Shown here: positions 17,982 to 35,731 of the stretch, in pieces
Layout: each line of letters begins with the position of its first letter
Position numbering within the stretch: the stretch's first letter is position 1
From: Spirosoma sp. KCTC 42546
Lineage (GTDB): Bacteria > Bacteroidota > Bacteroidia > Cytophagales > Spirosomataceae
Assembly (NCBI RefSeq): GCF_006965485.1
Contig: NZ_CP041360.1
Coordinates: forward strand, 1,488,001 to 1,552,000
Reading direction: 5' to 3'
DNA length: 64,000 bases
Program-made: the position numbers and the translations under genes
Notes under the pieces: generated by a model
Database searches by the model: none
Told to the model about the DNA's origin: nothing
Seen by the model: the letters and a program-made list of their open reading frames with translations, nothing else

Positions 17982-19097
17982 ATGAAATTAATCTCTACTA
18001 TCGGTTTAGCGATAGCGTATATACTTGTTTCCAACACAACAACATCGGCACAAGGTTGTGTGGCGGTTCGGCACATGAGCTGCGCAGCGCCAGCAGGTTC
18101 TGCCGATTATTTCAAACAACGTAATGGCCACTGGCAGGTGTCGGCGGGCTATCGGTTCTTTCGTTCCTACAAGCACTTTGTGGGCGATGTAGAGCAGAAA
18201 CAACGTGTTGAACAAGGCACCAATGTGATTAACGTTTCGCATGCTATCGATCTGGGCATCACTTATATGGTGAACCAGCGGCTGTCGTTTTCGGTCAACC
18301 TACCGATCCAGTACTACGACCGCTCATCCCTCTACGAACATTACGGCAATACCGTTGCGCAAAATCCCCAACAGAAACGGTTTGATACCGGCTCGGAGGG
18401 CATTGGTGATCTACGTATTTCTGGAAGTTACTGGCTTGTTAATCCAGTCAAACTGCCTAAAGCTAACCTGGCTGTTGGGTTGGGTGTAAAACTACCAACG
18501 GGTAAGTATGATGTGACCGACGATTTCCACAAACTGACGAAAGAAGGCATAGACTATACGATTAATAAACCCGTAGATCAGTCTATTCAGCTTGGTGATG
18601 GCGGTGTAGGGGCCAGTATTGAACTGCAAGGCTACGCGTCGATCACCAAAACGCTGACAGCTTATGCCAATGGTTTCTACCTGTTCAATCCAAAGGAAAC
18701 GAATAGTACAGTACGTAGCCCAGAAGCCACTACGATTGACCTTGTTACTGGCACCTTCTCGGTAGCCGACCAGTTTGCGGCTCGTATTGGTCTTAGCCAG
18801 TCGATCAAAGCTGTTCCGGGTTTGGCGGTTATGTTGGGTGGTCGCGTTGAGGGTGTTCCAGCTATTGATGCCTTTGGCGGCAGCTCAGGTTTCCGTCGGC
18901 CGGGGTACATCGTATCGGTTGAGCCGGGTTTGTCGTACATGCGCCACAAAACCTCAATTGCGGCTTCGGTACCGGTGGCTATTTATCGCAACCGGATCAA
19001 GAGCTATGCCGATCGGCTGGACCCACTGGGTGTAAAACAGGGCGACGCAGCCTTCGCCGACTATCTGGTTTCGGTTAGTTTATCGCGTTGGTTTTAA
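17982..19097 (+). CDS. Outer-membrane beta-barrel protein, first gene of the cluster
   Basis: The 371-residue protein has a signal peptide ending at STSAQ-like TTTSAQ, then GCVAVRHMSCAAP with two Cys near the mature N-terminus. The body is built of amphipathic strands (WQVSAGYRFFRSY, LSFSVNLPIQYYD, NLAVGLGVKLPTGKYD), closing with DYLVSVSLSRWF, a C-terminal aromatic barrel signal. It resembles the channel/transporter barrels often annotated as phenol-degradation MetA-like or neuromedin U-like. Here it precedes a TonB receptor, suggesting passage of a small solute. The solute is unknown. Confidence 0.75.
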   Translation: MKLISTIGLAIAYILVSNTTTSAQGCVAVRHMSCAAPAGSADYFKQRNGHWQVSAGYRFFRSYKHFVGDVEQKQRVEQGTNVINVSHAIDLGITYMVNQRLSFSVNLPIQYYDRSSLYEHYGNTVAQNPQQKRFDTGSEGIGDLRISGSYWLVNPVKLPKANLAVGLGVKLPTGKYDVTDDFHKLTKEGIDYTINKPVDQSIQLGDGGVGASIELQGYASITKTLTAYANGFYLFNPKETNSTVRSPEATTIDLVTGTFSVADQFAARIGLSQSIKAVPGLAVMLGGRVEGVPAIDAFGGSSGFRRPGYIVSVEPGLSYMRHKTSIAASVPVAIYRNRIKSYADRLDPLGVKQGDAAFADYLVSVSLSRWF

Positions 19098-19134
19098 GTC
19101 GATTCCGGCACTTTGTAGCACCAGGCTAGCTTCC

Positions 19135-19193
19135 GTCGACTCTTTGGATTCTTTTGTCTGCACATAATCAGCAAGAGAATCTAAAGAATCGAC
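19135..19193. repeat. GATTCT-type inverted repeat
   Basis: The left part (19135-19160, including CTTTGGATTCTTTTG) and right part (19169-19193, AGAATCTAAAGAATCGAC) are imperfect complements. The same GATTCT unit recurs at about 12955-12987 and 31157-31223. The element sits after a barrel gene and before the TonB receptor gene. Confidence 0.6.
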
Positions 19194-19307
19194 AGAATCA
19201 AAAGAAGCTAACTGGGAAGACTGCTAGTAAGTGTAAATCCTTCTCCAGTCGTCTTATAGGTTGTCTCCGGTAGCGAGATACTTTATCACGCTGTTTTAAT
19301 CCTAAGT

Positions 19308-21527
19308 ATGAAACGTATTCAATCAGTGCTATGCATGATCGGTCTAACTCTGGGCCTGGCTGGGAATTTGGTTGCCCAAACGCTAAACCAGAAAACAACT
19401 TCCCAACAGCAGTTGGTCGACTCGCTGCCAACGCAAACGCTGAATCAGGTAACGGTAAAAGGGGCTCGTTCGGTTATTGTTGAGTCGTTGCCCAACGTGT
19501 ATGGTACGTATCTGATGGGGGGTAAGCGTAGTGAAGCGATCCGGTTGTCGGAAATAGATGCCAATGTGGCGGAGAAAACACCCCGGCAGGTATTTGCTCG
19601 AATTCCTGGCGTATTTGTCTACGATATGGACGGTACCGGCAATCAGATCAACATTGCTACGCGAGGCCTGGACCCACACCGGTCGTGGGAAAATAACATC
19701 CGGCAGAATAGCGTCATTACCAATTCAGATATGTACGGGTACCCTGCCAGTCATTATTCACCTCCGATGGAAAGCATCGATCGGGTTGAGCTGGTGCGTG
19801 GTACGGCTTCGTTGCAATATGGTGCCCAGTTTGGTGGTATGCTCAATTATGTGACCAAACAGGCCGACAGCACACGTCGGTTTGGCTTTGAGACGGTTAA
19901 CTCGGTGGGCGCTTATGGACTACGAAGTTCCTACAATGCCATTGGTGGCCGAATTGGTAAGTGGACCTACTATGCGTATTACTATCGTCGGCATTCGGAT
20001 GGATACCGGGAAAATAGTAATTCAAATGCCGAAGCTCAGTTTGGACGCCTACAGTATCAGGCAACACAACGTTTGAGCTTCACCGCCGAATTTGGCCGGT
20101 CGGCTTATACGTATCAGATTCCGGGGCCGCTCACCGATGCTATGTTTGCTCAGGACCCTCGTCAATCGACCCGCAGCCGCAACTATTTCAACCCGGATAT
20201 TTACATCCCGTCGCTGAAGGCGGACTGGCAACTATCAGATCGGACGCGTTTGCTCTGGACGGTTTCGGCTGTGTTGGGTGCTCGGAATAGTGTACAACTC
20301 GATGCATTTGCGACTGTTCCCGATACCATTAATCACGTAACGGGACAGTACAAGGCCCGCCAGGTGGATATTGACAACTTCAATAGCTATACCTCCGAAA
20401 CCCGCTTACTGCATCGCTATAAACTGGGTACCATTGGGGGCGTACTGGCAGCGGGCGTCCAACTGATCAGCACTGATCTACACCGACGGCAATTGGGAGT
20501 TGGTACAACCGCCAGCGATTACGATCTCACCCTGACCAGCCCGTTTAAGCGTGACCTACATTTTCGGACGAACAACATTGCCATTTTTGTCGAGAATCAG
20601 TTTCACCTGACCGATCGGTTAATGGTGTCGCCGGGTATTCGGATTGAGAATGGCAAGACCGAAATGCGGGGTACTATTTCGTATTACGATCCAGGTAATC
20701 TCCCAACGGATATTAGCCACCATTTTGCGCTGTTGGGCATCAATGGTCAGTATCGAGTGAACGATGCGGTTAAAATCTACGGAGGTTGGTCGCAGGCGTA
20801 TCGTCCGGTTGTCTTTAAGGACATCATTCCAACATCGGTGTACGAACGGATCGACAAAAGCCTCAAAGATGCCTATGGCTACAATGCCGAAATCGGGGTG
20901 GATGGTCACTGGCAGGGATTGCACCTGAACGTGACAGTGTTTGACTTGCTGTACCGAAATCGGCTGGGAACGCTGCTGTTGACCAATGCAGATGGGTCGA
21001 ACTACGTTTTTCGCACCAACATTGGCGACAGCCGGAGCACGGGGGTAGAAGCTCTGCTTGAAGCGCAGTTACTTCGTACTGATAAGTTCTTGCTTAGTGG
21101 CTTTACGTCGACGGCTTTCAACAATGCCCGTTACATCAATGGCGTTGTTGCGGCCGGAACTGAGAATCGGAACGTGACGGGGCATCAGGTTGAGTCGGCA
21201 CCGCGCTGGACTACCCGAAACGGCCTGACAGCTCGTTACGGAACCGCCAGCCTGACGCTACAATACAGCTACGTAAGCCAAACCTTCTCCGACGCGCTAA
21301 ACACGGCTGTTCCTTCGGCCAATGGGGCTATTGGGCCAGTACCCGCCTATAGCCTGTGGGATCTGAACGGCACCTGGCGAATTAAAAAGTCGCTGACCAT
21401 CCGGGGCAGTGTCAATAACCTATTGAACCAGCAGTACTTCACCAAACGCCCTACATTTTACCCCGGTCCGGGTGTGTGGCCATCTGATGGCCGAAGCGCC
21501 GTGCTGACAGTGGGCCTTACTATTTAA
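19308..21527 (+). CDS. TonB-dependent receptor (FecA-like)
   Basis: The 739-residue protein has a signal peptide (LGLAGNLVAQ). A plug domain follows: LNQVTVKGAR, TPRQVFARIPGVFVYDMDGTGNQINIATRGLDPHRSWE, ESIDRVELVRGTASLQYGAQFGGMLNYVTK. The long 22-strand barrel ends with SAVLTVGLTI. The plug resembles ferric-citrate type receptors rather than SusC proteins; there is no carboxypeptidase-like domain or SusD partner. It takes up a scarce ligand, often an iron or metal chelate, using TonB energy. It is followed 30 bp later by a barrel gene in the same operon. Confidence 0.9.
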   Translation: MKRIQSVLCMIGLTLGLAGNLVAQTLNQKTTSQQQLVDSLPTQTLNQVTVKGARSVIVESLPNVYGTYLMGGKRSEAIRLSEIDANVAEKTPRQVFARIPGVFVYDMDGTGNQINIATRGLDPHRSWENNIRQNSVITNSDMYGYPASHYSPPMESIDRVELVRGTASLQYGAQFGGMLNYVTKQADSTRRFGFETVNSVGAYGLRSSYNAIGGRIGKWTYYAYYYRRHSDGYRENSNSNAEAQFGRLQYQATQRLSFTAEFGRSAYTYQIPGPLTDAMFAQDPRQSTRSRNYFNPDIYIPSLKADWQLSDRTRLLWTVSAVLGARNSVQLDAFATVPDTINHVTGQYKARQVDIDNFNSYTSETRLLHRYKLGTIGGVLAAGVQLISTDLHRRQLGVGTTASDYDLTLTSPFKRDLHFRTNNIAIFVENQFHLTDRLMVSPGIRIENGKTEMRGTISYYDPGNLPTDISHHFALLGINGQYRVNDAVKIYGGWSQAYRPVVFKDIIPTSVYERIDKSLKDAYGYNAEIGVDGHWQGLHLNVTVFDLLYRNRLGTLLLTNADGSNYVFRTNIGDSRSTGVEALLEAQLLRTDKFLLSGFTSTAFNNARYINGVVAAGTENRNVTGHQVESAPRWTTRNGLTARYGTASLTLQYSYVSQTFSDALNTAVPSANGAIGPVPAYSLWDLNGTWRIKKSLTIRGSVNNLLNQQYFTKRPTFYPGPGVWPSDGRSAVLTVGLTI

Positions 21528-21557
21528 ATGTCCATCGTACCAACTTATAATTAACTA

Positions 21558-22454
21558 ATGAAAACAAGTTTAAAATGCCTGCTCATCGTGTCTCTGCTGT
21601 CGCCGTTTGCGGCCCAGGCACAGATGCCGAATGATGCGATCTACATGGGTAAAAACCAGCTATGTACCGCCGTCATGTACGGCCATAGTTCCTGGAATCA
21701 GTATTGGGAGAATACACTCAAACGAGAGAACCTGAACATTGGCACGCAAACAACGCAGAGTGTCATGATTATGCCTGCCTTTGGGATCAGCAAGCGGGTC
21801 AATGTGATTATGAGCCTGCCGTACGTTTGGACGAGCAACAGCGCGGGTAACCTGATGGGCCAGCATGGCGTTCAGGACCTATCGGCCTGGTTGAAAGTGA
21901 AAGCCGTGCAGACTGGTGGTTTTTCACTCAATGCTATTGTGGGTGGGTCGATTCCGGTGGGCAACTACGTAGCCAGCTTTATGCCGATGTCTATCGGTAT
22001 GCAATGCCGTACGTTCACAGGACGGTTACTGGCCAATTATAAAGAGAAAAGAACGGGTCTGTACCTCACAGCCTATGGCAGCTACGGCTGGCGGAGTAAT
22101 AGCAAGATAGACCAGGACGCCTATCAGGCCGACGACCGGGTGTACAACACCAACCAGGTTAAGGTACCTAACACGTACGATGCTGCGGTTAAGTTAGGTG
22201 TGTTGCGTAAGGGATGGCAAACCGAAGTATGGGCCGAGCGTGTAGCTTGCCTAAGTGGCGATAATATTCGCCGGAACGATATGCCGTATCTAACCAACAA
22301 CATGCAGGCTACGTCGGTAGGTTGGTATGGTAAAGTGCAACCCAAAAATATTGGCGTAAATGCCCGTATCGGCTACGTTGTCGATGGGCTAAATGTTGGC
22401 CAAAGCACCAGCTATACCGTTGGTCTGCTGTATCAAATTAATTTCAAGAAGTAA
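21558..22454 (+). CDS. Outer-membrane beta-barrel protein (paralog of 33205-34122)
   Basis: The 298-residue protein has a signal peptide ending PFAAQAQ. Its amphipathic strands include TTQSVMIMPAFGISKRVNVIMSLPYVWT, GGFSLNAIVGGSIPVGNYV and the end TSYTVGLLYQINFKK. It aligns along its length with the barrel at 33205-34122 (for example VIMSLPYVWTSNSAGNL against LIVSAPYVRTQASAGYF). Each barrel precedes a haloperoxidase-family lipoprotein, so a barrel-plus-enzyme module appears twice. It is likely an outer-membrane channel for the enzyme's substrate or product (inference). Confidence 0.75.
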   Translation: MKTSLKCLLIVSLLSPFAAQAQMPNDAIYMGKNQLCTAVMYGHSSWNQYWENTLKRENLNIGTQTTQSVMIMPAFGISKRVNVIMSLPYVWTSNSAGNLMGQHGVQDLSAWLKVKAVQTGGFSLNAIVGGSIPVGNYVASFMPMSIGMQCRTFTGRLLANYKEKRTGLYLTAYGSYGWRSNSKIDQDAYQADDRVYNTNQVKVPNTYDAAVKLGVLRKGWQTEVWAERVACLSGDNIRRNDMPYLTNNMQATSVGWYGKVQPKNIGVNARIGYVVDGLNVGQSTSYTVGLLYQINFKK

Positions 22455-22472
22455 GCGCCCATACATAGCATC

Positions 22473-24020
22473 ATGAAAAAGTATAATCGAATTCTTGCAA
22501 TTGGCAGCGTTATCGCAGGCTTGTCTGTTGCTTTTGTTTCGTGTGATAAAAGTATTTCAGAACCACAGCGCGTAGGCTATACGCCCGCGAGTGTCGATGA
22601 TAAAGCGGGTACCTGGAAAACCTACGTGCTGACCGCGCCTACCGATGTAACAGTGGCTATACCAGCCTCAACATCGTCGGCAGCGTATCAGGCTGAACTA
22701 ACTGACCTCAAATCGAAATCGGCGAGTTTAACGCAGGATCAGCAGGAAGCCGTTGTGTATTGGGGCACGGGTGCCGTGTATCGCTGGAATGAGATTGCCC
22801 GCGAATTATGCGCCCGTTATAACATACCGCCCGCGTCAAACGCCGATGGTAAATATCCGGTACCTGATGCCGCTAACCCACTGGCTGATCCCAAATTCCC
22901 GTTTGCGAATCCACCCTATGCCTCCCGTGCGCTCGCTTACCTAAGCGTGGCTCAATACGATGCGCTGGTGGCGGCCTGGAGTTACAAATACAAGTTTAAC
23001 CGGGTAGCTCCATCGAAAGTAGATGCTACTGTACGGGTGGCACTGCCGACGTCATCTCTGCCTGCTTATCCGTCGGAAGATGCCGTTGTGGCAGCCGCTT
23101 CGGCTGTGGTTTTAAAAGCAATGTTCCCCGGCGAAGTTCCCTTCATAGATGCTAAACTGGCTGAACATCAGAACAGCCGCTTATGGGCGGGAATGAATGT
23201 AGCGAGCGATCTCAGTGCGGGCGTTGATTTAGGTAATCAGGCTGCTGCTAAAGTAATGGCGCGCGCTAAAACGGATGGTATGAGTGCCGCTAATAACCAG
23301 GCTGTAACGGCGGGTATGATTCAGGCCGCTAAAGAACGTGGCCTTACCGAAGTCTGGGTGAGTCAGGAAAGTCCAGCGCGCCCACCAATGTTACCGAATT
23401 TTGGTGCCGTATCGACCTGGAATTTTGATAAAGCAACCTTAGTTCAATTGCGCCCCGGTCCGCCACCCGCGCTCAATGATGCTACTTATCAGAAAGACAT
23501 GGATGAGCTGAAACAGATCAACAAAAGCCAAAGTCGCGAACAGGCCCGTGTTGCCAATTATTGGTCCGATGGCGCTGGTAGCTATACACCACCCGGACAC
23601 TGGCATCGCACGGCGGCCAATGCTGCCAATGAAGCTAAATACAGCGAGGTGCGCATGGCCCGGACGCTGGCGCTGGTAGGCACTGCCCTGGAGGATGCCG
23701 CCGTTGGTTGCTGGGACGCCAAGTACTACTACTACTATCCACGTCCACAACAGTTTGGGATGAAAACATCCGTTGGGTTACCAAATTTCCCGTCTTACCC
23801 GTCAGGGCACTCCACTTTTTCAGCCGCAGCTGCAACGGTGCTAAGTGCTATTTTCCCCGACAAAGCGAAGGATTTTGAAAACGAAGCAGCAGAGGCATCT
23901 TTATCACGAGTATATGGCCTGATCCACTATCGATTCGATTCGAATGGTGGCCTGGAGCATGGCAAGAAGATTGGTGCCTATGCTATCGCACGCGCTAAAG
24001 CTGATGGGTCGGGACTATAG
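22473..24020 (+). CDS. Vanadium haloperoxidase/PAP2-superfamily lipoprotein, copy 1
   Basis: The 515-residue protein has a lipoprotein signal (SVAFVSC). All three active-site motifs of the superfamily are near the C-terminus: KYYYYYPRP (about 416), YPSGHSTFS (about 443) and SRVYGLIHYRFD (about 478). These bind vanadate or phosphate, with His as nucleophile. The N-terminal half contains a decayed copy of the same motifs (KYKFNR, AYPSEDAVV, SRLWAGMN), evidence of internal duplication. Possible activities are halide oxidation with peroxide or acid phosphatase; sequence does not decide. It lies 18 bp after a barrel gene and 92 bp before an AhpD-like gene. Confidence 0.87.
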   Translation: MKKYNRILAIGSVIAGLSVAFVSCDKSISEPQRVGYTPASVDDKAGTWKTYVLTAPTDVTVAIPASTSSAAYQAELTDLKSKSASLTQDQQEAVVYWGTGAVYRWNEIARELCARYNIPPASNADGKYPVPDAANPLADPKFPFANPPYASRALAYLSVAQYDALVAAWSYKYKFNRVAPSKVDATVRVALPTSSLPAYPSEDAVVAAASAVVLKAMFPGEVPFIDAKLAEHQNSRLWAGMNVASDLSAGVDLGNQAAAKVMARAKTDGMSAANNQAVTAGMIQAAKERGLTEVWVSQESPARPPMLPNFGAVSTWNFDKATLVQLRPGPPPALNDATYQKDMDELKQINKSQSREQARVANYWSDGAGSYTPPGHWHRTAANAANEAKYSEVRMARTLALVGTALEDAAVGCWDAKYYYYYPRPQQFGMKTSVGLPNFPSYPSGHSTFSAAAATVLSAIFPDKAKDFENEAAEASLSRVYGLIHYRFDSNGGLEHGKKIGAYAIARAKADGSGL

Positions 24021-24022
24021 TT

Positions 24023-24100
24023 TAATGGTTAATGAATAATGGATAATGTAAAATAACCTGTCCCAGCCATCCTACATTATCCATTATTCATTAACCATTA
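24023..24100. repeat. Gene-junction palindrome, 28-bp perfect arms, 7-nt units
   Basis: Arms at 24023-24050 and 24073-24100 are exact complements with a 22-nt loop. Each arm is four degenerate 7-nt units of TAATGNN. The left arm begins 3 nt after the haloperoxidase stop; the right arm ends 12 nt before the AhpD start. Confidence 0.85.
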
Positions 24101-24112
24101 TCTATTCAAAAT

Positions 24113-24673
24113 ATGCCACATATCCCATTACCAGAGCAGTTACCGGGTATTACAGGCCTGCTCGAATATCGGTTAGATACTGCTGCGCCCATTCGTGAAC
24201 TCACGCAGCTCTTGTTGCGGGGTGAGTCAACGCTGTCGCAGGGCGAACGGGAACTGATTGCTGCCTTGGTATCGTCGCGGAACTGTACCAACTTCTGCGA
24301 GGCAGCCCATACGAAAGCGGCAGATATATTATTAGGTGACGATGAAACGGCTCGTGCGGTGAAATACGACATTGAAACGGCACCCGTCAGCGAGAAAATG
24401 AAGGCACTCCTCCAGATTGCCGTGCTTACGCAGCAAAATGGCAGAGACGTATCGCCCGAAGCAGTTGCCCGTGCTCGCGAAGCCAGTGCCACTGATCGCG
24501 AGATTCACGATACGGTGCTGATTGCTGCCTTGTTCTGCTTATACAATAAGTATGTGGATGGGATGGCAACCGTAGCGCCCACCGATCCGGCATTTTACCA
24601 GATGCTGGGCGAGCGAATTACAGGACGAGGGTATGTCCGTCCACCGGGCGGGTATCAAACGCAAACACATTAA
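24113..24673 (+). CDS. AhpD-like (carboxymuconolactone decarboxylase family) protein, copy 1
   Basis: The 186-residue all-helical protein is of the peroxidase-related AhpD/CMD family: GERELIAALVSSRNCTNFCEAAH, KALLQIAVL, DREIHDTVLIAALFCLYNKYVDG. AhpD enzymes use Glu...CxxCxxxH. Here Glu47, Cys62 and His66 align, but the first Cys sits at 58, one position early (CxxxC), so the dithiol geometry is altered. Copies at 28957 and 31260 share the MPHIxLP opening and the IHDTVLIAA block. It is probably cytoplasmic because no signal peptide is present. It follows the first haloperoxidase-family gene. Confidence 0.85.
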   Translation: MPHIPLPEQLPGITGLLEYRLDTAAPIRELTQLLLRGESTLSQGERELIAALVSSRNCTNFCEAAHTKAADILLGDDETARAVKYDIETAPVSEKMKALLQIAVLTQQNGRDVSPEAVARAREASATDREIHDTVLIAALFCLYNKYVDGMATVAPTDPAFYQMLGERITGRGYVRPPGGYQTQTH

Positions 24674-24746
24674 CCGGCTGACAGGGATTTAATCCATTGA
24701 TCGTGAGGCTCAAGTAGCCAAACGGCGCATCGAGAAACAAACCAAT

Positions 24747-24779
24747 TTCACCGACTTACGGGAATTTAATTCACCGACT
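24747..24779. promoter_or_regulatory. Direct repeat upstream of the second TonB receptor
   Basis: TTCACCGACT occurs at 24747-24756 and again at 24770-24779, 23 nt apart (about two helical turns), 58-90 nt before the receptor start. The spacing suits a regulator bound to one DNA face, but no binding protein is known. Confidence 0.35.
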
Positions 24780-24836
24780 GAAAACAAGCGTTTTTTGGTC
24801 GGCCTACCTCATCATTTGCTTTTTTTCTGAACAGAT

Positions 24837-27647: not shown

Positions 27648-28877
27648 ATGGAAACAATCCAACTCCCTGTTGATCAGGAACAACGCGTCAAACTGCCCTG
27701 GGGTAGTTTTGCACTCTGTGTGGTGGCCTATCTGTTCGGGGGTACGGCTAGCACGCTCATGGCGACGTACTTGCCGGTAGCTGTTCCTCAATTGCTTGGT
27801 GGAAAGGCTTCGCCTGCTGAATTGGATCAGGTTAGTGCCTGGGTTAGTGCTGCCTTCCTATATGGATGGATGATTGGTGGCTTCGTATTCGGGCCATTGG
27901 CCGATCGCTTCGGCCGAGTTCGGGCCCTGGTTCTGGCTACGGGATTATGCGGGGGGGGCATGTTGGCAACTGCCTTTGCTCCCAACGAGTACGTTTTGTT
28001 CCTGCTTCGGGCACTGACGGGTGCAGGCGTGGGAGGCATTCTTTTGGTGTCAACGGTTTACATATCGGAGGTATGGCCCGTTCGGTCGCGACCCGTTGCG
28101 TTAGGCGTACTGGCAACGGCATTTCCAGTGGGCATAGTAGCAACTGGCGGTCTGGCGAGTGGTTTCAGCGATTGGCAAATTGCGTTCGGCATTGGCGTGG
28201 TACCGGTCTTAGTCGCTATTCTGATTGGTCTGTTCCTCCCTGAGTCGGGCAGTTGGCAGCAGGGGAAAAGGCAAACTCATCAACCCAGTTTGTTCAGTGC
28301 TGAAAACAAGGCGAATGTCATTAGTGGCGCCATCATTTTTGGGTCGGTGCTGATTGGCCTTTGGGGTATTTTCTCATGGATACCAACCTGGGTGCAATCA
28401 TTGCTGCCGGTAGGCCAGACTGGCCAGATTGAACGTGGTATCACCATGATGTTGTTGGGAATGGGGGGCATTTTAGGAGGTATTGCATCGGGCTTTCTGG
28501 TGGCCCAGCTTGGGGCTCGTCAAACCTTGTTATTCACCTTTGCAGGTTGTATTCTAGCCTGCGGCTTACTCTTCCTAACGAACCAGTCTTTTTCGCCCGT
28601 CATTTATGGCGAACTGGCGCTCGTATCCCTATTTTTTGGGATTAGTCAGGGGTCATTGTCCAGCTATGTGCCTACCTTATTTTCAGCCTCAATTCGGGCT
28701 ACAGCCACTGGCTTCTGCTTTAATATTGGGCGACTGTTTACGGCCACATTAGTGCTATTTGTTGGTTCGTTGACAACCGCCCTGGGTGGTATTGGCAATG
28801 CGTTGGTCTTATTCTCAACTGCTTTTCTGATTGCATTTGTTGCGGTTTATCTAAAGAGCGAACGAGCGAACGAGTGA
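27648..28877 (+). CDS. MFS transporter
   Basis: The 409-residue protein has about 12 hydrophobic segments. The motif A-like loop GPLADRFGRVRALVLATG lies between helices 2 and 3 and a weaker equivalent after helix 8 (GGIASGFLVAQLGARQTLL). The opening and RSRPVALGVLATAFPVG resemble sugar/aromatic-acid transporters of the family. It sits between a TonB receptor gene and an AhpD gene. The last residues (SERANE and the stop) are encoded by an inverted-repeat arm of 8-nt units. Substrate and direction are unknown. Confidence 0.9.
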   Translation: METIQLPVDQEQRVKLPWGSFALCVVAYLFGGTASTLMATYLPVAVPQLLGGKASPAELDQVSAWVSAAFLYGWMIGGFVFGPLADRFGRVRALVLATGLCGGGMLATAFAPNEYVLFLLRALTGAGVGGILLVSTVYISEVWPVRSRPVALGVLATAFPVGIVATGGLASGFSDWQIAFGIGVVPVLVAILIGLFLPESGSWQQGKRQTHQPSLFSAENKANVISGAIIFGSVLIGLWGIFSWIPTWVQSLLPVGQTGQIERGITMMLLGMGGILGGIASGFLVAQLGARQTLLFTFAGCILACGLLFLTNQSFSPVIYGELALVSLFFGISQGSLSSYVPTLFSASIRATATGFCFNIGRLFTATLVLFVGSLTTALGGIGNALVLFSTAFLIAFVAVYLKSERANE

Positions 28878-28950: not shown

Positions 28951-28956
28951 TTTTCT

Positions 28957-29538
28957 ATGCCACATATCACACTTCCTGATGGCATTCCAGGTATTCGGAG
29001 TCTCGTCATGTACCGCCCCGATACCGGCCAGCATCTTTACGAACTGGCACAAACTTTGTTGCGTGCCGGTTCGCCCGATAGTACGCTCACCAATGCCGAA
29101 CGGGAACTGATTGCTGCGTTCGTTTCGAAGCAGAATCGCACTGATTTTTGTATGAACAGTCACGCGGCTGCGTCCCGGTACCTCTATGCCGATCAGCGCG
29201 CACTGGTTGATCAGACCTTACTTAATCCAGACTCTGCGCCAATCTCAGCCAAATTGAAAGCCCTGCTCACCATTGCTGATCACGTACAAGCCGACGCGCG
29301 TACCGTTTCAGACGATCTGGTAACAGCCGCTCGTGCTGAAGGGGCAACCGATGGGGACATTCACGATACCGTACTAATTGCGGCTTCATTCTGCATGTAT
29401 AATCGCTATGTAGATGGACTCGCTACGCTGACGCCCACCGATCCGGCGGCTTATGAAGCAATGGGGGAACGGATGGGAACTGTAGGCTATCAATTACCAA
29501 AGGCTGGCAATGCCGCCAGTTCTTCTACTTCTTTATGA
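28957..29538 (+). CDS. AhpD-like protein, copy 2, missing one cysteine
   Basis: This ~193-residue member matches copies 1 and 3 (MPHITLPDGIPGIRSL, ERELIAAFVSKQNRTDFCMNSH, GDIHDTVLIAASFCMYNRYVDGLATL). Measured against canonical AhpD, Glu50, Cys65 and His69 are kept, but the first Cys of CxxC is Thr62. A dithiol mechanism is therefore not possible unless another Cys substitutes. The ATG at 28957 is chosen because the in-frame sequence before it lies in the 8-nt repeat. It lies between the MFS gene and haloperoxidase-family copy 2. Confidence 0.83.
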   Translation: MPHITLPDGIPGIRSLVMYRPDTGQHLYELAQTLLRAGSPDSTLTNAERELIAAFVSKQNRTDFCMNSHAAASRYLYADQRALVDQTLLNPDSAPISAKLKALLTIADHVQADARTVSDDLVTAARAEGATDGDIHDTVLIAASFCMYNRYVDGLATLTPTDPAAYEAMGERMGTVGYQLPKAGNAASSSTSL

Positions 29539-29742
29539 TAGGTTGGTATAGTCCCTGGCTACTTTGTAGCTGGGGCACTATTGTTGCTAATAAATTACTA
29601 TAGAATAGATGATAATTGAAGAGAGTTAAATGGGGTAAATAGTTACTTCATATACGTTGCCACCGAAACTTAACCCATAGTGTATAAGAAATGGTATGCC
29701 ACCAAGTACTCACTATTTTTTACACTAATTATAAGGACAACC

Positions 29743-31146
29743 ATGAATTTTTTTACACACAAGTTAACATGGAAAACCAGTACAATCAGCCGTAACTACA
29801 GTATTCGTTACACCTTACTTATTGCTTTTGTGTGGATGTTGGCGGCTTGTCAGCCTAAAACAGATGATGTTGCGCCGGTCCTGACCGCATCTACCACAGA
29901 TGCCTCAGTGGCAACTCAATGGATGGATTTGTTCCTGAATGTCGAACGGTATGCGCCAGGGTACAGACCACCTGTAGCCGCCCGGACGCTGGCCTATATT
30001 GGGTTAGCTGCCTACGAAACGGTAGTGCCGGGTTCGGCAAAGTACCAGTCGGTAGCGTCTAGATTTTCAGGACTTACCGTGCCAAAGATAGAAACGGGTA
30101 AGTCGTATCGTTGGGATGTGGCCCTGAATGAAACCTACTACCTGATGATGAAAGGCTTCTTCCCGCACGTAGTTGATGCCGACAAAGCCAGGATTGAGGA
30201 GTTGTATAAAAAATTGACGATTACAGTCGGGGGTGCCGATGAACTGGATCGGTCTAAAAAATTTGGACAGGCTATGGCAACAGCGGTGTTCGACTATTCA
30301 AAAACCGACGCTGCTGGTGATGCAGCTTACCTTCGCAACCAACCTGCCGATTACGTACCCCCAACGGGCGTCGGTAAATGGCAGCCAACCGCTCCTGATT
30401 TCGGTCGGGCATTATTACCCTACTGGGGCAAAGTCAGGACCTTTGTTGCCAGTGAAACAGACAAAGTGGCCAAGGCTCCTCTTGACTATAGCACCAATGT
30501 AAAATCGACCTTGTTTGCACAGGGGCTGGAAGTTTATTCCAACACAACTCCGCTGTCAAAAGAGCAGCAATGGATTGGTGAGTTCTGGAGTGATGATATC
30601 TACAAACTAACATTCGAACCCGCTGGTCGTTGGCTGGCTGTTGCTCAACAAGTCGTTATCAAAGAAAAGGTAGCGTTGGATAAGGCTGTTTATACGTATG
30701 CGAAAATAGGTATTGGCCTGAGCGATATTGGTGTAGCTTGCTGGAACTCTAAATACATCTACAACATCGAGCGTCCCATCACCTATATTCGGAGAACGAT
30801 TGATCCTACCTGGGTGACACGATTGAACAATCCAATTAGTGTTGCGGTAGGGGTTACGCCACCGTTTCCAGCTTATCCATCCGGGCATTCCTGTTTCGGA
30901 GCTGTAGCGGCTGAAGTCCTAACCAATATTTACGGCACTGCGTACGCTATGACCGACCGCTGCCACGAGGGACGAACCGAGTTTAATGGTACACCCCGAA
31001 GCTTCAATAGCTTCTACGAGATGGCCCAGGAGAATGCGTATTCCCGGGTTGTTCTGGGCGTTCATTACCGTATGGATTGTGAAGAAGGATTACGCATGGG
31101 ATACGCCATCGGACGTAAGGTAAACCAGTTAACCTGGGAGAAATGA
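29743..31146 (+). CDS. Vanadium haloperoxidase/PAP2-superfamily lipoprotein, copy 2
   Basis: The ~467-residue protein starts at ATG 29743, giving the signal YTLLIAFVWMLAAC with a good lipobox; an upstream GTG at 29680 would only extend it. Active-site motifs are complete: KYIYNIERP (about 336), YPSGHSCF (about 380) and SRVVLGVHYRMD (about 434). It differs from copies 1 and 3 in the rest of the sequence and looks closer to typical bacterial vanadium-dependent haloperoxidase-like proteins. Vanadate binding and halide oxidation are possible, but phosphatase activity cannot be excluded. It is flanked on both sides by AhpD-like genes. Confidence 0.88.
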   Translation: MNFFTHKLTWKTSTISRNYSIRYTLLIAFVWMLAACQPKTDDVAPVLTASTTDASVATQWMDLFLNVERYAPGYRPPVAARTLAYIGLAAYETVVPGSAKYQSVASRFSGLTVPKIETGKSYRWDVALNETYYLMMKGFFPHVVDADKARIEELYKKLTITVGGADELDRSKKFGQAMATAVFDYSKTDAAGDAAYLRNQPADYVPPTGVGKWQPTAPDFGRALLPYWGKVRTFVASETDKVAKAPLDYSTNVKSTLFAQGLEVYSNTTPLSKEQQWIGEFWSDDIYKLTFEPAGRWLAVAQQVVIKEKVALDKAVYTYAKIGIGLSDIGVACWNSKYIYNIERPITYIRRTIDPTWVTRLNNPISVAVGVTPPFPAYPSGHSCFGAVAAEVLTNIYGTAYAMTDRCHEGRTEFNGTPRSFNSFYEMAQENAYSRVVLGVHYRMDCEEGLRMGYAIGRKVNQLTWEK

Positions 31147-31156
31147 CGAGATCCAT

Positions 31157-31223
31157 TAGATTCTATGGATTCTATTGATTTTTGACGATACATCTCGAAA
31201 TTTCAACAGAATCCACAGAATCA
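31157..31223. repeat. GATTCT-type inverted repeat
   Basis: The left part, TAGATTCTATGGATTCTATT from 31157, and the right part at 31203-31223 match as complements in about 19 of 22 positions. The element starts 10 nt after the haloperoxidase stop. It belongs with the GATTCT element at 19135. Confidence 0.65.
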
Positions 31224-31259
31224 AAATGACCAGCTATATATACCTAACCATAATAACCT

Positions 31260-31847
31260 ATGCCACATATCGAACTACCCGCCGGGTTGCCCGGCATCCG
31301 GGGGCCAATGGCGTTCAGCCCTGAAACCGCCCGTCCGCTTAACGATTTGGTCAATGTATTACTACGGACGAACGTAAGCCGACCCGAGTCGGGTTTGTCG
31401 GAAGGGGAACGGGAACTCATTGCGACCTATGTGTCATCGCTGAACGATTGCTTTTTCTGTCAGACCATCCACGGAGCCGTAGCCAGCCAGCACCTCGGCG
31501 ATACTGACTGGACGTTAGTGGAATCGGTGAAGTGTGATTACCAGGGGGCTGCTATCTCTCCCAAAATGAAAGCACTACTGACTGTAGCAGGGAGTGTGCA
31601 ACAGGGCGGGAAATTTGTTACATCAGAGCAGGTTGAGGCTGCCCGTGCCGAGGGTGCTACGGATCATGATATTCATGACACGGTGCTGATTGCTGCCGCG
31701 TTCTGTATGTTCAATCGCTATGTTGATGGGTTGGCGACCTGGGCTCCACAAGATCCAGGTCTGTACCGATACCGCGCCCAGAAAGTAGCCGAATATGGAT
31801 ACACACACGAGGATCATTATATGCCCACTACTCCCTTAACAACCTGA
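31260..31847 (+). CDS. AhpD-like protein, copy 3, with canonical CxxCxxxH
   Basis: The 195-residue protein has GERELIATYVSSLNDCFFCQTIH: Glu52, Cys64, Cys67 and His71 in the exact AhpD spacing, followed by DIHDTVLIAAAFCMFNRYVDGLATW. This is the only one of the three paralogs with the intact catalytic set, so it is the best candidate for active alkyl-hydroperoxide or disulfide reductase chemistry. It lies 11 bp upstream of the DUF3179 gene. Confidence 0.88.
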   Translation: MPHIELPAGLPGIRGPMAFSPETARPLNDLVNVLLRTNVSRPESGLSEGERELIATYVSSLNDCFFCQTIHGAVASQHLGDTDWTLVESVKCDYQGAAISPKMKALLTVAGSVQQGGKFVTSEQVEAARAEGATDHDIHDTVLIAAAFCMFNRYVDGLATWAPQDPGLYRYRAQKVAEYGYTHEDHYMPTTPLTT

Positions 31848-31858
31848 CCCTATCTTCG

Positions 31859-33088
31859 ATGAAGCGCTCCCTGTTGTTCTTTCTGATTCCGATCCTCCTG
31901 CTGATTGTTCTTGAGGTACTGAGTGTTTATTTCATTATGCCCTTCCCCGGCAGTCAGCTTGGCCTTACTGAGGCCGAAACGGGGCAGGCCGCACTTGGCC
32001 GTGTTGAACTGGCGTATTGGTTGCACAAGAACATCAGCTGGCTTCGAATAGTTGGGTTGCTGCTATTGGCTTACCCTGCCTTTTTGATCATCATGAAGCC
32101 CCGTCGAGTATGGCATCGGTATGTCGCAGGTGGGCTCGTATTATTGTATGGCGTAGTGTTGTATGAGGTCAATAGGGAGATGATGGCCGACCAGATGTTT
32201 AAGCAACCTATTCAAAAGCGGGTAGTGCCGATGAGTGAGAATAAAATTCCGCTAAACAAACTCGTGGTCGGTTTTGAGGCTATGGGACAAGCTACTGCTT
32301 ATCCACTGCAATTGATTGGTTATCACCATCAGGTGCGCGATACGGTGGGTGGCCAGCCCATTATGGTTACGTATTGTACCGTTTGCCGAACAGGGCGCGT
32401 ATTTAGTCCGTTCATAAAAGGGGAGGCTGATGAATTTCGGCTGGTAGGGATGGACCATTTCAATGCCATGTTCGAGGACAAACGTACCGGTTCCTGGTGG
32501 CGACAGGCTACGGGTGAGGCTATTGTAGGGCCCTTAAAAGGAAAAAGCCTGAGCGAGCTGACGGGCCGACAGATGACCCTGGGAGAGTGGGCTGCGGAAC
32601 ATCCCAATACGCGTGTATTGCAGGCGGATCCAGCCTTTGCTGAGGAGTTTGAGAATATGAAAAAATACGATCGGGGCTTGTCGAAGGGAAAGCTCACCCG
32701 CCGTGACTCCGCTTCATGGAAACCCAAATCGTGGGTTATTGGTGTGGAGAAGGTGGGCTTTTCGAAGGCCTATGACTGGAATAAACTGCAAACGAAGCGT
32801 ATCTTAAACGATGTTGTAGGGAATGAGCCGCTGGTGTTAACGATGGCTCCGGACAGTGTATCCTTTGGCGTATGGAGCCGACGGGTTGGTGTACAAACGC
32901 TCAACTTTCAGTACGCCAATCGCCAACTCACCGACCAGGAAACCAAGTCGGTCTGGACCTGGCGGGGACATTGCGTAGCGGGTCCCTTGCTTGGAAAGCG
33001 ACTTGCCGCCATCCCCAAAGCGCATCAGGAGTTCTGGCATTCGTGGCGCACATTTCACCCCGATACCAGGCGGGATGATGCTCCATAA
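31859..33088 (+). CDS. DUF3179 domain-containing membrane protein
   Basis: The 409-residue protein has two or three N-terminal hydrophobic segments (FFLIPILLLIVLEVLSVYFI, IVGLLLLAYPAFLIIM, YVAGGLVLLYGVVLY). A DUF3179 domain follows: GQPIMVTYCTVCRTGRVFSP (Cys pair near residue 175), DHFNAMFEDKRTGSWWRQATGEAIVGPLKG. DUF3179 proteins are exported or membrane proteins of unknown function with a conserved CxxC-like pair. Position directly after an AhpD with CxxC suggests redox coupling (inference). A clear terminator follows its stop. Confidence 0.87.
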   Translation: MKRSLLFFLIPILLLIVLEVLSVYFIMPFPGSQLGLTEAETGQAALGRVELAYWLHKNISWLRIVGLLLLAYPAFLIIMKPRRVWHRYVAGGLVLLYGVVLYEVNREMMADQMFKQPIQKRVVPMSENKIPLNKLVVGFEAMGQATAYPLQLIGYHHQVRDTVGGQPIMVTYCTVCRTGRVFSPFIKGEADEFRLVGMDHFNAMFEDKRTGSWWRQATGEAIVGPLKGKSLSELTGRQMTLGEWAAEHPNTRVLQADPAFAEEFENMKKYDRGLSKGKLTRRDSASWKPKSWVIGVEKVGFSKAYDWNKLQTKRILNDVVGNEPLVLTMAPDSVSFGVWSRRVGVQTLNFQYANRQLTDQETKSVWTWRGHCVAGPLLGKRLAAIPKAHQEFWHSWRTFHPDTRRDDAP

Positions 33089-33096
33089 GCATGCAA

Positions 33097-33122
33097 AGCC
33101 GGACCGCAAGTCCGGCTTTTTT
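33097..33122 (+). terminator. Rho-independent terminator after the DUF3179 gene
   Basis: AGCCGGAC (33097-33104), a 5-nt loop, GTCCGGCT (33110-33117) and a T-run make a textbook terminator 8 nt after the DUF3179 stop. It shows that the next barrel gene starts a new transcript. Confidence 0.88.
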
Positions 33123-33177
33123 GGTGACCACTCACGAGGAAAACGTCAATAAATACCAGATGCTAGCGTTGAACCTC

Positions 33178-33185
33178 TACTTTTG
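33178..33185 (+). promoter_or_regulatory. Candidate -7 box (TACTTTTG)
   Basis: TACTTTTG matches TAnnTTTG and lies 19 nt before the ATG at 33205, downstream of the terminator, which supports a new transcript here. Confidence 0.5.
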
Positions 33186-33204
33186 TACCACCTACCATAA
33201 GTTT

Positions 33205-34122
33205 ATGCGATTAGTAGCCTACATTGTCAGCATTGGTTTTTTACTGGGTTTGGCCCAGAAAACCCGCGCTCAGGGATCAATTGACGGCTTCATGCGCGGG
33301 CAACGAAAGGCCAGTCTGGCCATCTTTGGCGCGCAGGAAACCTACGATACGTATTACATCAACACGACAGAAACAAAGAACCCCAATCTGGGTACGGTTA
33401 CTACCCAGACCCTAACGGTCGTTGGCACCTACGGCTTAGGCTACGACCTCGATTTGATCGTGTCCGCACCTTATGTTCGTACCCAGGCCAGCGCGGGTTA
33501 TTTTCCTAAGCAGGAGGGCTTTCAGGATGTGTCGGGTACACTGCGCTGGGAAGCGTACGACTATAAGTTTGGGAAGACCAAGCTCTCCTGGGAATTCGCC
33601 GTTGGGTATTCTATGCCCATGCAGAATTACGTCAACGACGCACTCGTAGCTATTGGCCGTGGATCGCAGAATCTGGATGGCCGAACGTTGCTGCATTTTA
33701 AAGCGCCTAACTTTTTCATCACCGGTCAGTACGGCTACATTCGGCGCGGACAGGTCAAGCTTGATCACATCGTGAATACCTACGATCCTAGCCAACTGAA
33801 TCCAAACAGTGGCTTAAAAGTCAATGTGCCCGATGTTACGGAACTCATTGTCCGGGCGGGCATTGTCACAAAAGTGTTCAATATAGATGCCTGGTTCCAG
33901 CGTCAAACACCGCATAGCGATGGTACCAACATCGGTCCGGGCATTCCGTTTCCGACCAATGCCGTTGGGTTTACACGAGTTGGAGCAACGGCCTACCTGC
34001 GGCTGTTAAAGCAGTTCGGGCTGACGGCAGGCTATAACACGACACTCGATGGCCGGAATATCGGCAAAAGCACACAACTCAATGCAGGCGTAGTCATTGG
34101 TCACTGGACCGCAAATAACTAG
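33205..34122 (+). CDS. Outer-membrane beta-barrel protein (paralog of 21558-22454)
   Basis: The ~305-residue protein has a signal peptide (RLVAYIVSIGFLLGLAQKTRAQ). The start at ATG 33205 puts that signal at the N-terminus and lies after the terminator and promoter box; an in-frame upstream ATG at 33091 falls inside the terminator region. Barrel strands include TLTVVGTYGLGYDLDLIVSAPYV, SWEFAVGYSMPMQNYV and FGLTAGYNTTLDGRN, ending with LNAGVVIGHW. It aligns with the barrel at 21558 and, like it, precedes a haloperoxidase-family lipoprotein gene. Confidence 0.75.
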   Translation: MRLVAYIVSIGFLLGLAQKTRAQGSIDGFMRGQRKASLAIFGAQETYDTYYINTTETKNPNLGTVTTQTLTVVGTYGLGYDLDLIVSAPYVRTQASAGYFPKQEGFQDVSGTLRWEAYDYKFGKTKLSWEFAVGYSMPMQNYVNDALVAIGRGSQNLDGRTLLHFKAPNFFITGQYGYIRRGQVKLDHIVNTYDPSQLNPNSGLKVNVPDVTELIVRAGIVTKVFNIDAWFQRQTPHSDGTNIGPGIPFPTNAVGFTRVGATAYLRLLKQFGLTAGYNTTLDGRNIGKSTQLNAGVVIGHWTANN

Positions 34123-34172
34123 TTGCCTGTTAAATGGAACCATTCATGCTTTTTAAGCACTCCAGGGCATGA

Positions 34173-34218
34173 AAAAGCCTCTTTTCTAAACTAGGAGAGG
34201 GGTTGGGGTGAGGTTTAT
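34173..34218. repeat. Dispersed hairpin repeat, copy 2
   Basis: AAAAGCCTCTTTTCTAAACT then AGGAGAGGGGTTGGGGTGAG resembles copy 1 at 9221-9266. The stem has decayed to G-U pairs on the left side while the 3' flank is kept. It forms part of the leader of the third haloperoxidase gene. Confidence 0.7.
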
Positions 34219-34222
34219 CTAC

Positions 34223-35731
34223 ATGAAAGCGCGTAGTTTTTCGATCCTTTTAAGTGCATTACTGCTGTGGACAGTAGGCTGCAAAGAGCCTATTATCGAC
34301 GAGGGTGTACTGCCTTTTATTGTCCCTACATCAGTCGATGCCGATGGCGGTACCTGGCGGACCATTATCCTGAAATCGGCCACAGATATAACGGTTCCTC
34401 AACCCGTAGCCAGTACATCAGATACCTATAAACACGAGTTTTCTGATGTGAAAAACGGTGTGCTGGCGGCTACGCCCGAACAGAATACGGCCGTTAATTA
34501 CTGGGCTGCCGGGGGCGTTATCCGCTGGAACCAGATTGCCCGGCAATTGGTGGCAAAATATAACATAGCACCGGGTTACGATTACTTAACCGGGCAGACA
34601 ACATCAGCCGATGCCGGTAATCCATATGCCGGGCCGCCGTTTGCTGCCCGTGTCTATGCGCTGTTAAGTGTGGCTCAATATGATGCACTGGTGGTGGCCT
34701 GGCGGGCTAAGTATCAGTACAACCGGCCATCGCTGGAACAACAGGGTATTGTGGCCCGAGTGCCCATACTCAATGTACCATCCTACCCATCAGAAGATGC
34801 GGCCATTGCCGAAGCATCGTGCCAGATGCTGGCCTACTTTTTTCCGAATGAAGCCAGCTGGCTGAAAGCAAAAGCGACTGAACACAAACAAAGTCGATTA
34901 TGGGCCGGAGGCAACGTACCCAGCGACCTGAAAGCCGGTGAAGACCTGGGGGCTACATTGGTTACTAAAGTGATTGATCGCGCCAAAAACGACCGTTTTA
35001 CTGCTGCTACTGACCCAACAAACAGTTGGCAAACCGCGCTGTCTAAAGCGCCCTATGACCAGAAATGGAAAAGCATCGAATTGCCAGAGCGAGCGCCTAT
35101 ATTGCCATTGGCGGGTAAGGTAAAAACCTGGTACGACTCCACGGCTATTGTCGGGGCATCGCCCGCCACTCCTCCTGCTACAACATCCGCCGAGTTTCAA
35201 AAAGCCCTGAGTGAAGTGCGTGATCTGGCTAATTCCCGCACCCGCGATCAGTGGCGAATTGCCAGTTATTGGGATAATGGCCCCAGTACGTACTCGCTGT
35301 CTGGCCTCTGGAATTTTCTGGTTGAAGATCTTATTCGGCAGGAGGGGCAGAATGAACTACGAACAGCCCGGACGTATGCGCTGTTGAATCGAGCGATGCA
35401 GGATGCCACAATAGCCAGCTGGCGAACGATGTATACGTATTTTGTGCCGCGCCCGTCGCAAATTGACCCGACTATAAAAACGGCTACGCCTATCCCAAAT
35501 GCCCCTGGTTACGTAGCTGACCGGGCTGCCGTTTCGACTGCTGCCGTTGCTGTGCTGGCCTGTTTGTTTCCTGATGAGGCTACGCGTTTAAACGCACAGG
35601 CAACGGAAGCCGCGCTGTCGGGGCTGTATAGCGGTACCCACTTTCGGTTCGATGCCGACGCAGGAACGAAGCTAGGTACCGTTATAGGGCAATTGGCGGT
35701 TACCGGGGCAAAGGCCGACGGGGCAAAATAA
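34223..35731 (+). CDS. Degenerate vanadium haloperoxidase/PAP2-like lipoprotein, copy 3
   Basis: The ~502-residue protein has a lipobox (LLLWTVGC). ATG 34223 is preferred over GTG 34208, which lies inside the dispersed repeat. It is a full-length paralog of the gene at 22473, but the C-terminal active site is lost. Lys becomes Met (MYTYFVPRP), SGH is replaced (PGYVADRAAVS) and the SR Arg is Gly (SGLYSGTHFRFD); only RP and the last His remain. The N-terminal half keeps KYQYNRP, SYPSEDA and SRLWAGG, without the His residues. It is probably a pseudoenzyme, perhaps a binding or scaffold partner of copy 1. Confidence 0.82.
   Translation: MKARSFSILLSALLLWTVGCKEPIIDEGVLPFIVPTSVDADGGTWRTIILKSATDITVPQPVASTSDTYKHEFSDVKNGVLAATPEQNTAVNYWAAGGVIRWNQIARQLVAKYNIAPGYDYLTGQTTSADAGNPYAGPPFAARVYALLSVAQYDALVVAWRAKYQYNRPSLEQQGIVARVPILNVPSYPSEDAAIAEASCQMLAYFFPNEASWLKAKATEHKQSRLWAGGNVPSDLKAGEDLGATLVTKVIDRAKNDRFTAATDPTNSWQTALSKAPYDQKWKSIELPERAPILPLAGKVKTWYDSTAIVGASPATPPATTSAEFQKALSEVRDLANSRTRDQWRIASYWDNGPSTYSLSGLWNFLVEDLIRQEGQNELRTARTYALLNRAMQDATIASWRTMYTYFVPRPSQIDPTIKTATPIPNAPGYVADRAAVSTAAVAVLACLFPDEATRLNAQATEAALSGLYSGTHFRFDADAGTKLGTVIGQLAVTGAKADGAK

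What the first reader, a model, noticed from the sequence alone, without database searches (positions are those of the whole stretch)
17982..35731. Candidate envelope redox/haloperoxidase system built of repeated modules
A single-direction cluster joins three haloperoxidase/PAP2-family lipoproteins, three AhpD-like proteins, two TonB receptors, three outer-membrane barrels, an MFS transporter and a DUF3179 protein. Such a combination would link uptake of a ligand, peroxide- or vanadate/phosphate-dependent chemistry at the envelope and thiol redox proteins inside. I know of no described system with this content. The family assignments come from visible motifs; the shared function is inferred from co-location.
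Basis: partly seen in the sequence, partly recalled or inferred. Interest (0 to 1): 0.75.

Follow-up and report, generated by a model that had tools for sequence, protein, structure and literature searches.

The report
Haloperoxidase and AhpD envelope gene cluster
A block of thirteen bacterial genes joins an outer-membrane oxidase of the vanadium haloperoxidase family, a sister of it that has lost its active site, import proteins and peroxide-type enzymes; relatives keep the same neighbours in several orders, so it is probably a real envelope oxidation system whose task is still unknown.

Summary
The gene list is right: 13 consecutive + strand genes at 17982-35731. The predicted conserved neighbourhood exists. 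Outside the window's genus, V1 (haloperoxidase) and DUF3179 lie within 25 kb in 33 of 78 family genomes examined, in 9 of 12 genera; in all mapped loci that hold both they share a strand, with DUF3179 up- or downstream. It is not one unit of repeated modules. An old core (small membrane protein u, barrels B1 and B2, VHPO V1, often TonB receptor T1) spans several Bacteroidia families. A separable module (A1-T2-MFS-A2-A3-DUF3179) also stands alone, and is repeatedly lost beside V1 in the genus, with scars in two genomes. A third piece is the pair B3-V3. V3 is not a working haloperoxidase: 0 of 28 orthologues keep the vanadate site, though dN/dS is 0.04-0.11. Only A3 has the full AhpD motif. DUF3179 models as two Rieske-like domains without Rieske ligands but with a conserved His plus CxxC. 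B2 models as a COG4313-type channel. Best reading: oxidation by V1 at the envelope, import through the barrel/TonB/MFS route, AhpD-type chemistry inside. Halide oxidation, substrate and regulation are untested. Literature could not be searched.

The parts
17117..17656 (+). u: small protein with a hydrophobic N-terminus, no known family; first gene of the core
   Evidence: Its HMM hits 122 ORFs in the mapped loci scanned; the next gene on the same strand is B1 (55), B2 (37), A1 (9), T1 (5), A3 (4), DUF3179 (1), another (5), or none on that strand (6) (redundant set)
17982..19097 (+). B1: outer-membrane barrel, Phenol_MetA_deg / FapF-like
   Evidence: Pfam PF13557 26.6 bits over its cut-off; weak FapF matches
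19308..21527 (+). T1: TonB receptor, FecA/siderophore-like; absent from part of the orthologous loci
   Evidence: PF00593, PF07715; FecA E 2e-16; absence at some loci
21558..22454 (+). B2: outer-membrane barrel, COG4313-type channel fold; lies just before V1
   Evidence: Model pLDDT 85.4 with 12 long strands; 4rl8 E 3.7e-13, TM 0.71/0.78; upstream of V1 on the same strand in 77 of 80 named loci, within 300 bp without overlap in 62 of 78
22473..24020 (+). V1: VHPO-family lipoprotein with complete vanadate-site motif
   Evidence: PAP2; Zobellia VHPO 4cit E 5e-16 over residues 146-506; site complete in 57 of 58 rows
24113..24673 (+). A1: CMD/AhpD-like, CxxxC in place of CxxC
   Evidence: PF02627; TIGR01926 below its cut-off; motif classes
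24837..27629 (+). T2: TonB receptor with CarboxypepD_reg-like N-terminal domain
27648..28877 (+). MFS transporter, nearest the aromatic acid/H+ symport family but far below its cut-off
   Evidence: PF07690; TIGR00895 149 bits, cut-off 418.55
28957..29538 (+). A2: CMD/AhpD-like with a single active-site Cys (ORF listed from 28882; start by homology with MPHI N-termini)
29553..29575 (+). terminator-like hairpin; a similar hairpin follows V1 in many loci without the module
29680..31146 (+). V2: VHPO-family lipoprotein, complete site; in the genus found here in 4 genomes
   Evidence: 4cit E 7e-44, VCPO E 2e-12; site seen; distribution
31260..31847 (+). A3: AhpD-like with full E-x11-CxxC-x3-H motif
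   Evidence: TIGR01926 82.7 bits over cut-off 81.8; CxxC and His in 46 of 48 distinct
31859..33088 (+). DUF3179: N-terminal hydrophobic helices plus two Rieske-like domains; conserved His156 and Cys173-x2-Cys176
   Evidence: PF11376; model and fold search; internal repeat E 1.4e-15; residues
33205..34122 (+). B3: outer-membrane barrel paralogous to B2 (ORF listed from 33091; start by orthologue length)
   Evidence: 30% identity to B2
34223..35731 (+). V3: catalytically degenerate VHPO paralogue, lipoprotein (ORF listed from 34208)
   Evidence: 0 of 28 orthologues of the genus keep the site; dN/dS 0.04-0.11
35761..35780 (+). terminator-like hairpin with T run after V3

Best explanation
An envelope oxidation-and-uptake locus. 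V1, a lipoprotein of the vanadium haloperoxidase family, oxidises a small substrate (halide, or through it a phenolic or other organic compound) at the cell surface or in the periplasm. B1, B2 and B3 are small outer-membrane channels that supply or remove small molecules for it. V3 is a conserved non-catalytic partner or a repurposed relative. The A1-T2-MFS-A2-A3-DUF3179 module takes a product or ligand in through T2 and the MFS permease; the cytosolic AhpD-type proteins act on it or on peroxide damage, and DUF3179 does redox or metal chemistry on the periplasmic face of the inner membrane. Shown here: gene content, conserved linkage, intact V1/V2 sites, lost V3 site, folds by model. Inferred: localisation, substrate, halide oxidation, electron flow, co-function.
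For: Linkage: DUF3179 within 25 kb of V1 in 33 of 78 family genomes outside the genus, 9 of 12 genera. In all 55 mapped loci holding both they share a strand, 8 with DUF3179 upstream and 47 downstream (the two locus sets overlap in genomes). Also linked in Algoriphagus (L286) and two Sphingobacteriales MAGs (L263, L266). Other VHPOs sit inside the module in other genera: between MFS and A2 in L129, L153 and L155; next to or one gene from DUF3179 in L127, L196 and L104, the last two from another family. 121 of 124 DUF3179 genomes of the family carry a V1-type VHPO, against 58 of 98 without (not corrected for relatedness). Gene u heads both modules. V1 site intact in 57 of 58. DUF3179 is present in all 5 partial loci. 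B2 is channel-like. All 12 genes tested have dN/dS of 0.11 or less in the usable pairs, many with dS above 1.
Against: V1 and DUF3179 are unlinked in 40 of 40 examined genomes of genus g30 and, in the class sample, in the 11 genomes of other families with both: 10 on different contigs, one of them (G584) too fragmented to tell, and 1 at 1.5 Mb. V1 lacks the module beside it in 13 of 28 mapped genus loci. GlgE also stays near the locus in three other genera, so part of the linkage is plain synteny. No activity data; no peroxide source in the cluster; the MFS is far below the aromatic-acid family cut-off.
Confidence: 0.43

Rival explanations
1. Two independent envelope systems, a VHPO core and an AhpD/TonB/MFS/DUF3179 module, sit side by side through inherited synteny and occasional insertion, without shared function.
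For: The module stands alone in full order in L101 and L191, and in shorter form in L103 and L141-L144; 0 of 40 linked in g30; V1 without the module beside it in 13 of 28, deletion scars in L074 and L076; GlgE and moaA also stay nearby.
Against: Linkage recurs with different order and side in several genera and outside the family, on one strand in all mapped loci; other VHPOs lie inside the module elsewhere; DUF3179 alone is left beside V1 in L076 after deletion; u heads both modules.
Confidence: 0.27
2. V1, V2 and V3 are PAP2-type phosphatases, or phosphatase-derived proteins, and the locus scavenges phosphate esters at the surface with TonB and barrel import.
For: VHPOs and class A acid phosphatases share the site (established knowledge); V1 also matches acid phosphatase 7f17/7f18, and for V3 these are the best PDB matches.
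Against: V1 and V2 match a VHPO structure best and over most of their length; the residues equivalent to W350 and F397 of VCPO are kept in V1 (residue roles recalled); no phosphate regulator or phosphate transporter among the cluster's Pfam matches.
Confidence: 0.15
3. The VHPO makes hypohalous acid against competitors or as a signal, and the AhpD proteins protect the producer.
For: VHPO family plus peroxidase-related proteins.
Against: Does not explain T2, MFS and DUF3179; A1 and A2 of the window lack the CxxC pair.
Confidence: 0.1

Closest known systems
Zobellia galactanivorans vanadium-dependent haloperoxidase (PDB 4cit, 4usz; organism recalled)
   Same: V2 E 7e-44 and V1 E 5e-16 align over most of the enzyme; vanadate-site residues kept in V1 and V2
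   Different: V1 is only distantly similar, is a lipoprotein paired with a channel gene, and sits in a larger locus; V3 has lost the site
Streptomyces VHPO natural-product clusters (napyradiomycin NapH1/NapH3; recalled, not looked up)
   Same: Contain active VHPOs, and NapH3 is recalled as a VHPO-fold protein without vanadium dependence
   Different: No terpene or polyketide biosynthesis family among the 13 genes here; envelope import genes instead
AhpD / peroxidase-related proteins (TIGR01926; PDB 3c1l, 6k40)
   Same: CMD family; A3 has E-x11-CxxC-x3-H
   Different: A1 (CxxxC) and A2 (single Cys) depart from the two-Cys motif; three paralogues with a transporter pair
COG4313 outer-membrane channel of Pseudomonas putida (PDB 4rl8)
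   Same: Best fold match of the B2 model, TM 0.71/0.78
   Different: 15% identity; paired with a VHPO gene
Rieske proteins (for example 2qpz, 3gce, 5cxm)
   Different: C-x-H...C-x2-H ligand motif absent in 90 of 90 sequences; domain duplicated

Membership tests
Vanadium-dependent haloperoxidase | PAP2 superfamily catalytic domain over the Pfam cut-off | tested here: met
   V1, V2, V3 all over cut-off
Vanadium-dependent haloperoxidase | Vanadate-binding residues K-R-S-G-H-R-H in V1 and V2 | tested here: met
   V1 57 of 58 rows; V2 of the window complete
Vanadium-dependent haloperoxidase | Vanadate-binding residues in V3 | tested here: not met
   0 of 28 V3 orthologues of the genus complete; the Gly of SGH replaced in all 28
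Vanadium-dependent haloperoxidase | VHPO-type length with two helical bundles rather than a single-bundle phosphatase | tested here: inconclusive
   V1 146-506 and V2 47-480 align with 4cit by sequence; no model of V1 or V2 was made
Vanadium-dependent haloperoxidase | Vanadate- and peroxide-dependent halide oxidation | not testable with these tools
   needs purified protein
AhpD alkylhydroperoxidase | E-x11-CxxC-x3-H in A3 | tested here: met
   46 of 48 distinct A3 sequences, the window's included
AhpD alkylhydroperoxidase | CxxC in A1 and A2 of this window | tested here: not met
   A1 has CxxxC, A2 a single Cys
Rieske [2Fe-2S] protein (DUF3179) | Rieske fold | tested here: inconclusive
Rieske [2Fe-2S] protein (DUF3179) | C-x-H...C-x2-H cluster ligands | tested here: not met
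   0 of 90 sequences
COG4313 outer-membrane channel (B2) | 12-stranded barrel fold like 4rl8 | tested here: met
   12 long strands in the model; E 3.7e-13, TM 0.71/0.78
VHPO natural-product gene cluster | Adjacent terpene or polyketide biosynthesis genes | tested here: not met
   none among the 20 genes scanned with Pfam
TonB-dependent receptor (T1, T2) | Plug plus beta-barrel domains | tested here: met
   PF07715 and PF00593 over cut-off in both

The most novel reading that the evidence does not exclude
A previously undescribed Bacteroidota system in which a haloperoxidase lipoprotein works with a conserved dead haloperoxidase as scaffold or substrate-binding partner, a dedicated outer-membrane channel, and an inner-membrane DUF3179 protein built of two Rieske-like domains with a new His/CxxC metal or redox site; together they oxidise an organic substrate outside and import the product for AhpD-type enzymes.
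Probability: 0.2. Interest if true: 0.75.

Novelty: new variant of a known kind. Interest (0 to 1): 0.52.

Why it matters
Few bacterial VHPOs have a known role outside natural-product synthesis (recalled, not looked up). A conserved partner set (channel, pseudoenzyme, transporters, DUF3179) gives concrete, testable partners and a natural experiment: related species that keep or lose the module. It also gives DUF3179 a fold hypothesis and a candidate active site, and AhpD-like proteins an unusual genomic context.

Tried and rejected
Recent tandem duplication of a B2-V1 unit giving B3-V3: not supported by the trees. V3 groups (100/99) with VHPOs that still have a full site (L145, L147), and B3 is far from B2.

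A Bacteroidota-type promoter pattern gave 0 matches in the window, with 1.55 expected by chance. Sigma-70-like sites were at chance level (21 against 21.9); terminator-like sites only mildly above (30 against 21.7, sd 4.3), so the hairpins rest on their conserved place, not on the scan. Rfam gave only three microRNA family names, all below their gathering scores, two of them at a palindromic repeat; treated as false.

The first internal-repeat test of DUF3179 was misformatted and showed nothing (end); rerun correctly. First motif counts for the AhpD proteins picked a wrong site in A1; corrected.

DUF3179 on the two plasmids found (Thiothrix, Deinococcus) has no annotated VHPO in the 13 kb shown.

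On re-checking I corrected a draft statement that V2 is confined to four genomes: V2-like VHPOs lie inside or beside the module in other genera. I moved the best explanation from 0.40 to 0.43 and the first rival from 0.30 to 0.27 for that reason.
Full report
WHAT IS THERE. The window is G000:C1:1488001-1552000, a single 8.66 Mb contig. Thirteen + strand genes fill 17982-35731: B1, T1, B2, V1, A1, T2, MFS, A2, V2, A3, DUF3179, B3, V3. A small gene u (17117-17656) precedes them, and GlgE follows.

THE HALOPEROXIDASES. V2 is a clear member of the VHPO family (4cit E 7e-44, fungal VCPO E 2e-12). V1 is a more distant one (4cit E 5e-16; acid phosphatase 7f17 E 7e-8). In an alignment of rows of 400 aa or more, the vanadate-site signature is complete in 57 of 58 V1 rows; the remaining row is incomplete there. 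In V3 it is degenerate in all 28 rows of the genus, in lineage-specific ways: in the window Lys to Met, PSGH to VADR, SR to SG. Yet V3 is conserved: 35 of 36 genomes of the genus have a match at E 1e-180 or better, and in the remaining one (G026) the best match is only the V1 paralogue. Its dN/dS is 0.04-0.11 in 8 pairs, against 0.01-0.07 for V1 in 7 usable pairs (many dS values exceed 1, so these are rough). So V3 is a maintained pseudoenzyme or repurposed protein. In the tree it groups with VHPOs of two other genera (L145, L147) that keep the full site, so it looks like an old paralogue that lost catalysis and not a recent copy of V1. B3 is likewise far from B2.

V2 ELSEWHERE. Within the genus V2 occurs at this place in 4 genomes. 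But other VHPOs sit inside or beside the module in other genera: between MFS and A2 in L129 and L155 (58% identical to V2, followed by a second, weaker one without the pattern) and L153 (32%), after A3 in L153 (65%), after DUF3179 in L127, directly before DUF3179 in L196 and one gene before it in L104, the last two from another family of the order. This ties the module to VHPOs in general, not only to V1.

THE AhpD PROTEINS. A1, A2 and A3 are 48-50% identical paralogues without an evident signal peptide (inspection). A3 has E-x11-CxxC-x3-H in 46 of 48 distinct sequences. A1 is CxxxC in 18, CxxC in 14 and single-Cys in 8 of 40. A2 is CxxC in 16, single-Cys in 10 and CxxxC in 5 of 31. All 71 A1 and A2 sequences keep the second Cys and the His. 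So the pair that defines AhpD is intact only in A3 of this window.

B2. The model (pLDDT 85.4, 12 long strands) matches the COG4313 outer-membrane channel 4rl8 best (E 3.7e-13, TM 0.71/0.78). B2 lies upstream of V1 on the same strand in 77 of 80 named loci.

NEIGHBOURHOOD. Family search: V1/V3-type VHPO in 179 of 222 genomes, 28 of 36 genera; DUF3179 in 124 of 222, 17 of 36 genera. 121 of the 124 carry the VHPO against 58 of the other 98 (Fisher p 9.5e-14, not corrected for relatedness). Outside the genus, 98 genomes have DUF3179. For 78 of them I had a VHPO place (the listing was cut; the other 20 were not examined). In 33 of 78 the two lie within 25 kb, in 9 of 12 genera. In g30 it is 0 of 40, and in g2 and g25 0 of 3; at least one of the two g25 rows (G097) uses a V3-like VHPO (L145), so it does not test V1. 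Contig lengths suggest that g30 is Dyadobacter. In a sample of 396 genomes of the class, 29 have V1 and 41 have DUF3179. Outside the family 11 genomes have both (Fisher p 9e-7, uncorrected). There V1 and DUF3179 are on different contigs in 10 (one of them, G584, too fragmented to tell) and 1.5 Mb apart in 1. Among 80 named V1 loci (up to 10 kb each side, some shorter), 23 hold DUF3179, all on V1's strand, 18 downstream and 5 upstream; they include Algoriphagus and two Sphingobacteriales MAGs. Gene orders differ: V1...DUF3179 in Spirosoma, Larkinella and Runella; DUF3179-B2-V1 in Emticicia aquatica, Arcicella and Lacihabitans; V1-T1-...-DUF3179 in Sphingobacteriales. The module stands alone in full order in L101 and, in another family, L191; shorter versions are in L103 and L141-L144. 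The gene directly after u on its strand is B1, B2, A1, A3 or T1 in 110 of 122 hits (loci partly redundant, L191-L210 not scanned).

HISTORY IN THE GENUS. Of 28 same-genus loci in the tree, 10 have the module beside V1 (at least five of its six genes), 5 part and 13 none (not counted: L069, whose genes are in pieces, and L094, whose V1 is split). Some of the 13 carry DUF3179 or the module elsewhere, for example G007 (L101). The states are interleaved on the V1 tree. Scars show deletion in two: in L076 the start of A1 runs into the end of A2, followed by DUF3179; in L074 A1/A2 remnants precede A3-DUF3179. DUF3179 is present in all 5 partial loci; for the other three an origin by deletion is not shown. 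A hairpin of one type follows V1 in 8 of 13 loci without the module that were scanned, follows A2 in 7 of 10 scanned loci with it, and follows V1 in none of those 10 (one search shows a like one in L095, which was not scanned). This fits A1-A2 belonging to the V1 transcript and the genes after it to a second one; not shown.

INTERPRETATION. I favour an envelope oxidation-and-uptake system (0.43) over two neighbours with unrelated work (0.27), a phosphatase locus (0.15) or an oxidant weapon (0.1). No result here shows halide oxidation, a substrate or co-regulation. GlgE near the locus in three other genera (g54, g43, g57) shows that synteny alone explains part of the linkage.

LIMITS. The literature library failed in every call (18, 19, 22, 44, 57, 75) and the large protein database was off (37), so novelty claims are weak. 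NapH3, the VCPO residue roles and the organism of 4cit are recalled, not looked up.

Noticed in passing
window 24021-24112: A palindromic AT-rich intergenic repeat between V1 and A1; a search with it gives 77 matches (both strands, itself included) in the genome, and Rfam misreads it as mir-577.
   Followed up: partly
L003, L004, L005: Three further VHPO-like genes elsewhere in the same genome.
   Followed up: no
L069 (G015): V1, T1, T2, MFS and DUF3179 lie in pieces in this genome, perhaps sequencing errors.
   Followed up: no
L076, L074: Deletion scars of the AhpD/TonB module inside the V1-B3 interval.
   Followed up: yes
L129, L153, L155, L127, L196, L104: Other VHPOs lie inside the module or next to DUF3179 in other genera.
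   Followed up: partly
L295 (Thiothrix subterranea plasmid): DUF3179 lies beside a GDCCVxC (seleno)protein, DUF4395, a thioredoxin-domain protein and cytochrome c peroxidases.
   Followed up: no
window 35834-37846: GlgE-like glucan:maltose-1-phosphate maltosyltransferase stays near the cluster in three other genera.
   Followed up: no
L090-L091 (G029): About 20 kb of other genes separate V1 from B3-V3 in this genome.
   Followed up: no
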